This document shows, in pieces, positions 1-62,711 of a stretch of 64,000 nt of DNA. Below the pieces are notes generated by a model. The model was not told the DNA's origin. It saw only the letters and a list, made by a program, of their open reading frames with translations, and made no database searches. The stretch lies in assembly GCA_027972325.1 (NCBI GenBank), contig JAPMOS010000068.1, forward strand, positions 140,420 to 204,419, given 5' to 3'. Position numbers and translations under genes: made by a program. Position 1 is the first letter of the stretch. Every line of letters begins with the position of its first letter. This stretch comes from Paratrimastix pyriformis (taxonomy: Eukaryota; Preaxostyla; Paratrimastigidae).

Positions 1-3000
1 TCGGACGGGGGTGGTGCATCGTAGGTGGTGATGGCGGCGACCCCATCGGGCAGGCTCTCCTGGTCGTTGGGCTGCTGCTGCGCCGCCCCGGGGGGGATGG
101 TGGCTAGCCCCTCGGGGCCTGCAGAGTCGGGGCGGGGCGGGGGCGGGGGCGGGGGCGCCTTCCGATGGGCCAGGAGTCTGGCCACGGCCCCGGCGGCCGC
201 GAAGGCGTGCAGCGCGCTGGCAGGCCGGACGGCGGCTGCCCCCGGGGGAGCAGCAGGCTGAGGTGATGCCGGGGTGGGGGATGCCGGCAGGGGGGCCGCG
301 TCATCTGGGGTGACCAGGACCGGCTCCCACGGGCCGCCCGGCTGGTCGGCAGGGGGCGCGGGGCCCGCTGCTGGGGCGGCGGCGGCTGTTGCCCCCGGAC
401 CAGCAGCCGCACCCGCATCCACATCCGCACCCGCACCCGCATCCGCATCCGCATCCGCATCGGCATCGGCATCAGCGGGGGGCGGGGGCGTGGCCTCGCC
501 GGGGGCCTGCCAAGCCACCAGGCCCGGGGACCCCATAGCCGGGCCCCTCCCGGCGGCCACCCCACTGGGCGCCACCGGCCCCGCCATGGCCACCGTCGGC
601 TCGGAGAGCCGCCGCCGGGACACCCCCTGTGACTGCTGCTGCTGCTGCTGCTGCTGCTGCTGCTGCTGCTGGGTGATGGCGGTGTCCACCGGGGCTGCTC
701 GTGGCTGGGCGGTGGGGCTGGTGGGCGGGCTCAGCTCGGGGGACGCCGGACGTGGCGGCAGGATGAGGGCATCGGGGGCAGGGGCACCACCCGGGGCGGG
801 GGCGGTGACAGGGCCGGGGGCAGGGGCGGCGGCCGTGGCGGCGGCGGCGGCGGCGGTGGTGGTGCGAGCGTGGGCGATGATGGCGCGGGCCAGGCCGCTC
901 CCCCGCCTGTGGTGGCGCCGCTTGGCGGAGGCCGCGCCGGCAGCAGCGGGCGGCTGTGCGTCCAGGGCGGGGCTGCCCACAGCTGGCCGCTGCCCCTCAG
1001 CCGCAGCAGCAGCCGCAGCATCCGCTGACGGGGTGGCAGGGCCGGGGCTGATGGCGGTCGGCTCGGCTTCGGCTGGGGGCGGCGGCGGCGGGGCGTCGGT
1101 GGGCGTGGCGCCAGCGGCAGCAGCGACCGAAGCGGCGGCGGCGGCCGTCACGACCGAAGCGGCCGCAGCGGCGACGACAACCGTGGCGGCGGCGGCTGCG
1201 GCGGCGAGGGCCGGGGAGACGGGCCGGGGCGTGGCGGGCGGGGTGGGGCAGTCGTCGTCGGCGCTGTCGGTCCGCGTCATCATGCCCGCGGCCAGGATGG
1301 GCGGGGGCGGCGGTGGCAGGGAGGCCTCGTGGGCGGGGGCGAGGGCCGCCGGGGGCAGGACCAGCAGGGGGGTGGCCGCCAGGGCGGGGCTGCTCAGCAT
1401 CAGCACCGTGGTGCCCGCGCCCGGCAGGCTGGACGGGGTGGGGGGCGTGGCTGCGGTGGCGGCGGCCCCGACGGGGGCGGCCTCGGCGGGGGCGGCGGGT
1501 GGGGCGGGTGGGGCGGCCTGGCGCGGGGTGGGCGAGCGGACGGAGGGCGAGGCGGTGGGGGCGGGGTGAGGCCTGCCTGGGCCAGCAGCCGACGCAGCAT
1601 CGCCCGCTGCTCGCGGCCCTCGGCATGCACCGCCGCCAGCTGCCCCACAGACACACACACCCCAAACCCCAACCCATACACACGCCAAGCCGCCGCCACC
1701 CGTCCCGCATGCCCCACCCACGTGTACCCGTCCCACATGCCCCGCCCATGAATACAAGCGGTCAGGGTGGGCAATGGGGGGGGGGGGGGGGGGGGGGGGG
1801 GGGATAAGCAGGCAGGATGTGTGGGAGCGACCATGGCCTTGGTCAGGCGGGGGCGGAGCAGAGGCGGGGGGTGGGGCGAGCAGGCAGGGTGTGTGGGTGT
1901 GGGTGGGGTGTGGGTGTGTGACCTGGGCCTTGATGGCGTCCAGCTTGCCGTCCATGAGGTCCTCCTTGCTCGGGTTCTCGTACTTGTACACAGCCCTGCA
2001 CAGGCCGCACCCGCCCAGCCCGCCCACAGCCCGCCCCACACAGCAGCAGCAACAGCAACAGCAGCAGCAGCAACAGCAGCAGCAACAGCAACAGCAGCAG
2101 CAGCAGCAGCAGCAGCAGCAGCAGCAGCAACAGCAACAGCAACAGCAGCAAGGGATCGGTCAGGACCAGGCGGGTATGGAGAGGGCAGGTCACCGGCGAG
2201 TTGCTGGGGCCAGAGGCCGCGGGTCGGGGGGGCCGATGGGACGGGCTGAGTGGGTGGCGGACCTGCGGGCGGTGCGGAGCTGCTTGATGATGCGCATCCG
2301 GGCGTGGCTGGTGCTGTTGGCGTGGGCCTGCAGCAGCAGGGGCGGGGCCCCGCCCCGGGCCAGCCACCGCGCCTGCTGCTTGCTCCGCCAGGTGTGCTGC
2401 CCACAGCCACAGCCAGCCAGCCACAGCCAGCCAGCCACAGCCAGCCAGCCACAGCCAGCCAGCCACAGCCAGCCACAGCCAGCCACAGCCAGCACAGCCA
2501 GCACAGACAGCCAGCCACAGCCACCGAGAGAAGGATGAGGCAAGTGTGCAGCTTGCTCGGCCAGCTGTGCTGAGGCCCCCACAAATCCACGCCAGCCAAG
2601 CCACACACAGCCGCACAGCCACCACACAGCCCGCACCAAGAAGGATGTGGGATGGCACAGATGACAGTTGATGATCTGGTGTAAGTGTGTGCTCGCATAT
2701 CAGGGTGGCTGGGCTGTGGGCTGTGGGCTGTGGGCTGTGGGCTGTGGGCTGTGGGCTGTGAGGCAGATCGCCTGGCGCATGTCTCGATGGCCGGTGTGTG
2801 TGTGTCAGCATCCATGTGTACGGTGGCCGGTGTGTGTCAGCATGCCCATGTGTACGGTGTGTGTGTGTGTCAGCATGCCCCATGTGTCCGATGGCCGGTG
2901 TGTGTGTGTGTGTGTTGTGTGGCCGGACCTGGATGAGGGAGGCGCAGATGGCCTGGTAGCCCCGGTTGGCCGTGTTCCGGGCCACGTAGTCCACCGCAAA

Positions 3001-61900: not shown

Positions 61901-62711
61901 ACTTCTCATGGGCTTTTGACGTTCCCGTTACCTTTTGGGCTTCCCAATATTGACCTTTGCTTTGCCCACCCCTCCTCCAGGCATTGACATGAACCCCAAC
62001 TTGATCACGGAACTCCAGTTCGACGCGGTCTTCAGCGGGTTTGAGCCCGGCCACGTGGAAAGCTTCCAGCTTCGGGCGGCCAGCCCGTCGGCACAGGATG
62101 TCGATGCCGGCCCGGTGCACCCCGCAACTCCCGCGGCCGCCGAAGCTGGCGTCTCTGTGACAGGGTTGGGTCTGTCGGAGTGCCTGTGCGGTGTCTTCCT
62201 TCTTGGGTCAGCTTCCAGTGGCTCACCTTCCGAACATCTCGTTTTTTTTCCAGGTGTTGATCCGTCGCCCACTCCGACCGTTGTGCCGGCAGCCAACGTG
62301 GGGCTGGTCGGGGCCGTCGTGGGCGGTGCCGTCGGCGGCATCGTGGCCATTGGGCTCGTTGTTTTGTCAGCTGTGGTGATTCGGGCTCGCCTTCACTCAG
62401 CATCGAAGAAGGGGCTCCTTGAAGGGCCACAGGGCCAGATGCCCACTGTGCGGACAACGGCCGCTCCAAGGAAGGATGACAAGGGAAGGCCCAGCCTGGT
62501 CCCGAGCCCCTCGGGGCCGGCGACGGGACGTCCGGCAGCAGCAACGGAGGCTCTCGAACAAGGAGGTCGACCAAGCCCTAAACCGATGAGCTCGAGCCCT
62601 TCGCTCCGCACACCGAATCCTGCTGGCAGGCGCACTCCACGGTCACGGGCTGCCCCCGGCCACGAACATGATCCTCCTGTGTCATCAACACTCGGAAAGG
62701 CGCGAAGGTAA
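46236..62711 (+). CDS. Giant type I membrane protein: C-type lectin + sushi-like + EGF array
   Basis: Start MRLFSTLVLLILFLLSFAGT (signal peptide). CTLD exons: GDCWVLNNDQKKWPDARAWC, DLATIRDETEDIVVRAIV, FWIGLTRNHLFSPFYW + LDGDTSTFRNWGWGQPE, VVMNLGQSRMGYWYIS, AKVCQLV. EGFs at 47044-47210, about 19 sushi-like modules with four more EGFs to 54161, then one 6-kb exon (54272 to about 60301) with some 27 double-EGF units and five diverged EGFs, an EGF exon (VGDCTEDADCSPGTCEG), a C-terminal ectodomain (60581-61667) with HGFNLSAFVIAQGVPPAQP, more beta-type exons, one TM helix (VGLVGAVVGGAVGGIVAIGL, about 62297-62380) and a basic Ser/Pro-rich tail to 62711. Total roughly 4,000 residues. Probably a surface adhesion, prey-recognition or matrix receptor (inference). 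Seven units of the EGF array lack one G, breaking the frame as given. Confidence 0.85.
47298..54161 (+). other. Array of about 19 sushi-like modules with four EGF exons interspersed
   Basis: Module pattern TCxAPxL...GCxxGxxxGxxC, LxCxxGYxxSGxxxYxC, then xGTGPGxAAYTGGxLxCT. Most modules are a single exon that starts after CAG in phase 1 and ends TGCACN|gtcyg in phase 1; five modules are split once at the GxxxG position (for example near 47655, 48595, 50905, 53030 and 53750). EGF exons (IPCLSDADCLHGGTCEGG, GDCTDDEDCQHGGQC, MECTQDPDCRHGGHC, GDCTEDADCEHGGTC) occur as two adjacent pairs at about 49436-49720 and 52200-52605. Six cysteines and no conserved terminal Trp separate it from the classical CCP domain. 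Confidence 0.7.
54290..59930 (+). repeat. 204-bp tandem array encoding about 27 near-identical double-EGF units
   Basis: Unit starts (TGCG after CCCTGG) fall at 54366, 54569, 54773 and so on to 59867, spaced 204 bp except seven spaced 203 bp. Each unit encodes 68 residues with two EGFs (DGDCSNGGTCGEDNMCHCPD, then DPEHPCLNGGRCNPDTGACE). Variation is limited to a few positions: AD/EH/ED before QC, QCE/QCQ, CVE/CAE, and silent gac/gat. Units starting 54366, 56201, 56404, 56811, 57014, 57217 and 58644 have four instead of five G in the SNGGTC codons. Confidence 0.95.
60581..61667 (+). other. C-terminal ectodomain shared with the small secreted gene at 27807-28504
   Basis: One 1.09-kb exon after a gattag acceptor. 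Starts CPYEPIRCWSRDFFAATYTD and contains HGFNLSAFVIAQGVPPAQP, CVTDMAASVTIPQLLLCPDV, PIHVLAKVTTGIDPNGEF and GYRYQSMTLIIRQTASL. This first third aligns along its length with the small secreted protein; the remaining part (GDSFFDHEGEQYVLHF, then CLLRGVYTIGSMITCRDPDL) is unique to this gene. Confidence 0.75.

What the first reader, a model, noticed from the sequence alone, without database searches (positions are those of the whole stretch)
1..62711. Genome-wide non-canonical 5' splice signal GTCYGY
In every gene on both strands, introns that must exist to keep protein families in frame start GTCCGC, GTCCGT, GTCTGT or GTCTGC and end CAG. Clear cases are 18260 (PP2C), all 16 UTP4 introns (gtcyg, or gtcgg at 33515), both SK genes at the equivalent S2 position, CDK20 (HQVATR|gtctgt) and nearly every sushi exon. 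The usual GTRAGT pairing with U1 is absent at +3 to +6. A minority start gtttg, gttcg, gtcgg or gtcag. A fixed C at +3 with YG at +4/+5 suggests a changed U1 5' end (complement RCRGAC) or dominance of U6/protein recognition. I do not know of a described genome with this donor consensus.
Basis: seen in the sequence. Interest (0 to 1): 0.9.

Follow-up and report, generated by a model that had tools for sequence, protein, structure and literature searches.

The report
Splice signal and U1 RNA co-evolved
In this unidentified eukaryote most introns that could be checked start with GTC and a G at position five instead of the usual GTAAGT-like signal, and the U1 RNA that reads this signal carries matching letter changes, which suggests that a nearly universal recognition code has been rewritten here.

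Summary
The window lies in a 56 Mb GC-rich eukaryotic assembly. Spliced alignment requiring only GT..AG, with +3 to +6 free, kept 117 of 183 introns, from 22 loci on 18 contigs: C at +3 in 102, A in 0, G at +5 in 93, GTRAG in 0. Unused GTs nearby have C at +3 in 179 of 543. Strict GTCYGY is commonest (67 of 117) but not universal.

All 8 U1 genes found begin AUACAGACCUU, not AUACUUACCUG; the canonical 11-mer is absent from the assembly. U1 G6 pairs with +3C. Mean predicted duplex energy is -6.95 with the native end, -3.87 with the canonical. Four U6 genes keep ACAGAG. U1 now shares AUACAGA with U6, so +3..+6 CUGU is complementary to both. C, commonest at +4 and +6, pairs with neither RNA and is unexplained.

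Best reading: a natural, genome-wide re-coding of the 5' splice site with a compensating U1 change. My paper searches found no such case. There is no RNA evidence, and the organism is unidentified.

The parts
29016..34537 (+). UTP4 gene, 17 exons and 16 introns as read by hand
29048..29108 (+). UTP4 intron 1, donor GTCTGC
   Evidence: same
29233..29391 (+). UTP4 intron 2, donor GTCTGT; acceptor uncertain (one search puts it at 29313)
29690..29774 (+). UTP4 intron 3, donor GTCCGC
   Evidence: same
29838..30058 (+). UTP4 intron 4, donor GTCCGC
30237..30374 (+). UTP4 intron 5, donor GTCCGC
   Evidence: same
30451..30745 (+). UTP4 intron 6, donor GTCCGC
   Evidence: same
30866..31187 (+). UTP4 intron 7, donor GTCCGG
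31272..31441 (+). UTP4 intron 8, donor GTCCGT
31581..31648 (+). UTP4 intron 9, donor GTCCGC (bridges this poorly conserved stretch differently)
31811..32211 (+). UTP4 intron 10, donor GTCCGC
32320..32491 (+). UTP4 intron 11, donor GTCCGG
32701..32922 (+). UTP4 intron 12, donor GTCCGC
33211..33376 (+). UTP4 intron 13, donor GTCCGC
   Evidence: same
33515..33684 (+). UTP4 intron 14, donor GTCGGC
33841..33955 (+). UTP4 intron 15, donor GTCCGC
34211..34357 (+). UTP4 intron 16, donor GTCCGT
44386..45809 (-). CDK20 gene, the part read (ends not determined)
45648..45691 (-). CDK20 intron, donor GTTTGC
   Evidence: placed elsewhere when the donor rule is dropped
45544..45588 (-). CDK20 intron, donor GTCAAC
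   Evidence: with and without donor rule
45399..45451 (-). CDK20 intron, donor GTCCGG
   Evidence: with and without donor rule
45231..45288 (-). CDK20 intron, donor GTCTGT
   Evidence: with and without donor rule
45069..45118 (-). CDK20 intron, donor GTCTGT (after HQVATR)
   Evidence: with and without donor rule
44854..44953 (-). CDK20 intron, donor GTCCGC
   Evidence: with and without donor rule
44728..44781 (-). CDK20 intron, donor GTCTGC
   Evidence: with and without donor rule
44615..44661 (-). CDK20 intron, donor GTTTGT
   Evidence: with and without donor rule
44477..44524 (-). CDK20 intron, donor GTCTCC
   Evidence: with and without donor rule
   Evidence: read by eye; motif hit; gene identity not tested

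Best explanation
The nuclear 5' splice-site code of this eukaryote has been rewritten from GTRAGT to a GTCYGY-like form, and U1 snRNA has changed with it. Shown from sequence: sampled donors nearly always have C at +3 and mostly G at +5, with pyrimidine favoured at +4 and +6; all 8 U1 genes found start AUACAGACCUU, so U1 nucleotides 5-6 are AG instead of UU and nucleotide 11 is U instead of G; the U6 box ACAGAG (4 copies) and U5 loop 1 (1 copy read) are ordinary. Inferred: U1 finds the donor by pairing its nucleotides 3-10 (ACAGACCU) with -2..+6, G6 to +3C and C4 to +5G, with A5 and A3 pairing when U stands at +4 and +6. The donor is then passed to U6, whose ACAG can pair with the same CUGU at +3..+6. 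U1 and U6 therefore show the donor the same letters, AUACAGA, where other eukaryotes have two that differ.
For: 8 of 8 U1 copies with AG at 5-6 and U at 11, reversed control 0 (ends read; full-length family matches). Canonical ATACTTACCTG 0 times in the assembly, reversed control 33 + 24. +3: C 102, A 0, G 8, T 7 of 117, so 109 of 117 can pair with G6 counting G-U. Background and donor-free controls. Mean duplex energy -6.95 native against -3.87 canonical. Native U1 pairs more positions than canonical at 74 donors, equally at 30, fewer at 13 of 117. A TCCCATAA element sits 59-60 bases upstream of all 8 U1 copies, 66-67 upstream of 4 U6 and 54 upstream of the U5 read, which suggests working genes.
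Against: The U1 matches (50.8-60.2 bits) are below Rfam's gathering score of 69.5. C is the commonest letter at +4 and +6 and pairs with neither A5/A3 of U1 nor U6; U at +4 is not enriched over background (36 of 110 against 138 of 543, p 0.12), U at +6 weakly (38 of 110 against 125 of 543, p 0.015). GG at U1 5-6 would fit the donors better (-9.69) than the native AG, which ranks 2 of 16. Changing position 5 alone gives no gain (-3.29). The expected trade-off between -1G and U at +4/+6 is not significant. U1C was not detected. No RNA data.
Confidence: 0.82

Rival explanations
1. U6 leads and U1 hardly matters. Donors drifted towards the best fit with the unchanging U6 ACAG (CUGU at +3..+6), recognised mainly by U6 and proteins; the U1 change is secondary or neutral.
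For: U6 ACAG is exactly complementary to CUGU; U6 is unchanged in 4 of 4 copies. U1-independent donor choice is known in some settings and in Cyanidioschyzon, which lacks U1 (PMC11732430, passages). U1C not detected.
Against: Leaves the exact U1 G6 match to +3C, identical in 8 of 8 copies, as a coincidence. Mean duplex energy of the donors is stronger with U1 (-6.95) than with U6 (-2.33). -1G and -2A, which face U1 and not the U6 box, are still favoured (81 and 57 of 117).
Confidence: 0.12
2. A second, ordinary U1 exists in unassembled or overlooked sequence and does most of the work; the AG form is a minority variant.
For: The assembly has 495 contigs and may be incomplete; the family search scored only 41 of 992 first-look candidates.
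Against: ATACTTACCTG is absent from 56 Mb; a pattern leaving positions 5, 6 and 11 free found only AG copies, 8 of 8; 0 of 117 sampled donors are GTRAG.
Confidence: 0.04
3. Composition or reading artefact: in a 69% GC genome apparent GTC donors arise by chance or from wrong gene models.
For: Raw AGGTCYGY counts in the window are only modestly above shuffles (16 against 9.7). Some of the 117 boundaries are wrong (see Tried and rejected).
Against: Nearby unused GTs have G, not C, commonest at +3 (211 G, 179 C of 543). Motif discovery without a GT prior and alignment without a donor rule give the same motif; the matching U1 change is independent evidence.
Confidence: 0.02

Closest known systems
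Canonical U2-type introns with U1 AUACUUACCUG and GTRAGT donors
   Same: GT..AG ends, U1, U5 and U6 genes recognisable, U6 ACAGAG and U5 loop 1 unchanged, donor complementary to the U1 5' end
   Different: U1 5-6 AG instead of UU, U1 11 U instead of G; +3 C instead of A/G, +4 pyrimidine instead of A
Saccharomycotina switches of +4 A to U (PMC10581693, section 7 and passages read)
   Same: A lineage-wide donor preference moved; the paper names U1 5 to A as a possible compensation
   Different: There U1 ACUUACC was invariant in every species where U1 was found, and METTL16/SNRNP27K loss was the correlate; here U1 changed while METTL16-like and SNRNP27K exons are present
Cyanidioschyzon merolae (PMC10581693 section 7; PMC11732430 passages)
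   Same: An snRNA that reads the donor is altered
   Different: There the U6 box has A to U and U1 is missing; here U6 is intact and U1 is changed
Diplonemid S. specki alternative U1 (PMC12621601, passages read)
   Same: A U1 with a changed 5' end
   Different: One copy with a run of C beside a normal copy; here all 8 copies found carry the change and the donors match it
Fritillaria borealis non-canonical introns (PMC13326754, abstract and passages read)
   Same: Genome-wide departure from the usual donor rule
   Different: There the U1 5' end is strictly preserved and U2AF and m6A changed instead; GT is lost there but kept here
Laboratory compensatory U1 changes (Zhuang and Weiner 1986, seen only as a citation in PMC11732430)
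   Same: U1 5'-end change matched to a donor change
   Different: A designed single-gene test; here natural and genome-wide

Membership tests
U2-type (major) spliceosomal introns | GT..AG ends | tested here: inconclusive
   GT..AG was imposed in the main count; without a donor rule GTC is the commonest start, 86 of 183, and 8 of 9 CDK20 donors stay. This favours GT strongly but weak alignments blur the rest.
U2-type (major) spliceosomal introns | GTRAGT-type donor | tested here: not met
   GTRAG 0 of 117, A at +3 0 of 117
U2-type (major) spliceosomal introns | donor complementary to the genome's own U1 5' end | tested here: met
   not met at +4 and +6 where C stands
U1 snRNA | Rfam U1 model at gathering score | tested here: not met
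   8 matches over model positions 1-166 at 50.8-60.2 bits, E 2e-10 to 4e-13, gathering score 69.5
U1 snRNA | 5' end ACUUACCU | tested here: not met
   ACAGACCU in 8 of 8
U6 snRNA | ACAGAG box and family score | tested here: met
   4 copies, 96.7 bits, cut-off 44
U5 snRNA | loop 1 GCCUUUYAC and family score | tested here: met
   7 matches over the cut-off; loop read in one, L070; loop motif recalled
U12-type (minor) introns | RTATCC donor | tested here: not met
   no such start among 117 (GT was imposed, so AT starts were not open to it); motif recalled
U12-type (minor) introns | U11, U12, U4atac, U6atac snRNAs | not tested

The most novel reading that the evidence does not exclude
U1 has converged on the U6 ACAGA box. 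By two substitutions its 5' end became AUACAGA, the letters that U6 uses, so the two successive readers of the donor share one code and the hand-over from U1 to U6 exchanges like pairings for like. C at +4 and +6 would then be read either by A-C wobble or because the U1 (and perhaps U6) adenosines facing those positions are deaminated to inosine, which pairs with C and U; inosine at U1 5 would act like the best-fitting variant, G at 5.
Probability: 0.35. Interest if true: 0.95.

Novelty: new variant of a known kind. Interest (0 to 1): 0.9.

Why it matters
The donor-pairing end of U1 is treated as almost invariant: in the yeast survey of PMC10581693 it was unchanged wherever U1 was found, and Fritillaria, with 95% of introns off the GT/AG rule, kept it (PMC13326754). 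Here nature seems to have made the compensatory pair, U1 6 with donor +3, across an intron-rich genome. That offers an independent test of how much U1 and how much U6 shape the donor, a point under debate (PMC11732430). It raises the question of how many introns and a multicopy RNA changed together. It also removes the two adjacent uridines that are pseudouridine in human and yeast U1 (stated in PMC3510501). Gene finders trained on GTRAGT would fail on this genome.

Tried and rejected
Composition artefact: rejected by the background-GT test and the searches without a donor rule. Mixed assembly: unlikely, since a U6 gene and a kinesin locus with these donors lie about 12 kb apart on contig C112, and a U1 gene and a kinesin locus share C24. 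Loss of METTL16 or SNRNP27K as the cause: not supported; a METTL16-like exon with MCNPPFF and an SNRNP27K exon with QYMNRKG were found (comparison with the human proteins is recalled). U1C: the only zf-U1 hit matches WBP4 better than U1C, and a direct U1C query gave only that locus; a zinc finger split by an intron would be missed, so absence is not shown. Trade-off between -1G and U at +4/+6: not significant. Large window ORFs as proteins: of 7 tested, 6 had no Pfam match and 1 a sub-cut-off TAP42 match. Organism: best protein matches are 36% (UTP4, soft coral Dendronephthya), 51% (kinesin, Eukaryota sp. GEM-RC1) and 58% (CDK20, an EukProt entry without organism name); I could not name a lineage.

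Rows dropped and known errors: 66 of 183 introns failed the 6-bit flank filter. Of the 30 loci brought only L040 was used besides the 20 fetched regions; 20 further planned kinesin regions were not obtained. Two synthetic fusion proteins were left out of the kinesin profile (118 of 120 used). Of the 7 UTP4 introns among the 117, 5 agree fully with my reading, 1 agrees at the donor only, and 1 is a shortcut across a poorly conserved linker; other wrong boundaries are likely. CDK20 is not among the 117. My first CDK20 assembly had a frame slip near its end, settled. In one search one U1 locus (L004) was anchored at a wrong site; its upstream element is seen.
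Full report
Setting. The window is 64 kb of a 56,060,509-base, 495-contig eukaryotic assembly, with GC between 57% and 74% in 4-kb steps. The three proteins searched are not close to anything known: UTP4 36% to a soft coral, a kinesin 51% to Eukaryota sp. GEM-RC1, CDK20 58% to an EukProt entry. The organism is unidentified.

Are the introns real? In UTP4 I read 16 introns whose removal gives an 869-aa protein. It matches the UTP4 homolog of PDB 7mq8 at E 3e-49 and UTP4 of many species. 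Its donors are 15 GTCYG and one GTCGG. In CDK20, on the other strand, a profile of 120 homologues aligned to the genomic DNA gives 9 introns; without any donor rule 8 of the 9 donors stay at the same base.

Wider sample. Kinesin motor exons were located in the genome (135 matches) and 20 regions fetched. Motif discovery with no GT prior in 58 exon-end windows gave CAG|GTCCGC, with +3 C .82, +4 C/T .41/.40, +5 G .85, +6 C/T .46/.41. GTCYGY occurs in 31 of 58 donor windows, 7 of 64 acceptor windows and 1 of 58 reverse complements; GTRAGT in 1 of 58 donor windows. I then wrote a spliced aligner that requires GT..AG and ignores the other donor letters. On 20 kinesin regions, locus L040 and UTP4 it gave 183 introns, of which 117 have at least 6 bits on both flanks. 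Counts: +3 A0 C102 G8 T7; +4 A4 C59 G16 T38; +5 A4 C15 G93 T5; +6 A5 C64 G9 T39; -1 G 81; -2 A 57. Commonest starts: GTCCGC 30, GTCTGT 14, GTCCGT 12, GTCTGC 11. The 117 lie on 18 contigs, and 20 of 22 loci have C at +3 in more than half. For the 110 kinesin introns, +3C is 95 against 179 of 543 other GTs within 60 nt, +5G 87 against 163 of 543, +4 pyrimidine 90 against 332, +6 pyrimidine 96 against 307.

U1. Eight loci match the U1 family over its whole length, below Rfam's gathering score. All 8 start ATACAGACCTT. A pattern with positions 5, 6 and 11 free and up to 3 mismatches found 8 copies, each with AG and T, and none in the reversed control. The canonical ATACTTACCTG is absent; its reversed control occurs 33 + 24 times. 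A TCCCATAA element lies 59-60 bases upstream of the 8 U1 copies, 66-67 upstream of the 4 U6 copies (CCCATAA in one) and 54 upstream of the U5 read.

Fit. U1 G6 faces +3: 102 Watson-Crick and 7 G-U of 117. U1 C4 faces +5 G. U1 A5 and A3 face +4 and +6: 38 and 39 U, but 59 and 64 C. Mean predicted duplex energy is -6.95 with native U1, -3.87 with the canonical end, -6.02 with only position 6 changed and -3.29 with only position 5 changed (both on the native U11 background, where the unchanged UU form gives -3.10). Among 16 variants at 5-6 the native AG ranks second after GG (-9.69). The position-6 change carries most of the fit. The position-5 change gains something only together with it, and U at +4 is not enriched over background. 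This is a real weakness; it may point to A-C wobble or inosine.

U6 and U5. The U6 box is unchanged in 4 of 4 copies; U5 loop 1 is ordinary in the one of 7 loci read. The U1 letters AUACAGA now equal the U6 letters AUACAGA, and CUGU at +3..+6 is the complement of ACAG in both. I infer that the two-step reading has become one code; which RNA or which site moved first is unknown.

Proteins. A METTL16-like exon, an SNRNP27K exon and LUC7 at two places are present; U1C was not detected. The yeast link between METTL16 loss and +4 U (PMC10581693; passages, section 7) therefore does not obviously explain this donor.

Literature. Ten searches were answered, over an open-licence PMC library that lacks most subscription papers. 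None listed a genome with GTCYG donors or a genome-wide matching U1 change. Passages seen: Giardia U1 keeps ACUUAC (PMC3510501); the Guillardia nucleomorph keeps ACUUAC and Bigelowiella keeps the recognition motif (PMC6461891); Entamoeba is said to lack U1 (PMC13292270); the diplonemid S. specki has one U1 copy with a C stretch beside a normal one (PMC12621601); Fritillaria keeps its U1 end (PMC13326754, abstract and passages); Aureococcus has many GC-AG introns (PMC3033335); two donor classes and the U1/U6 debate (PMC11732430); a review with nothing further on the U1 end (PMC8624252).

Verdict. Use of the sites in splicing, U1 expression and U1 modification remain unshown.

Noticed in passing
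window 54406-60003: A tandem array of about 27 copies of a 203-204 bp unit, most copies 98-100% alike and several 75-77%; it produces long spurious open frames on both strands.
   Followed up: no
window 62938-64000: A 17-bp tandem repeat array, 45 register positions listed, reaching towards the window end.
   Followed up: no
genome G000, many contigs; L001-L012, L070: The element GTCCCATAATNNTTCC found upstream of U1, U5 and U6 occurs 732 + 695 times (up to 2 mismatches) against 44 + 29 for the reversed control, far more than the snRNA genes seen; what the rest serve is unknown.
   Followed up: partly
L064, G000:C86:24809-24916: The only zf-U1 domain found in the genome belongs to a WBP4-like protein; U1C itself was not detected.
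   Followed up: partly
window introns, e.g. about 29870-29970 and 32000-32160: Many introns are filled with short G+C-rich repeats such as GAGGGC or CCCTG (seen).
   Followed up: no
L068-L069, G000:C46:373670-375001: A second, diverged LUC7-like locus besides the strong one on C474.
   Followed up: no
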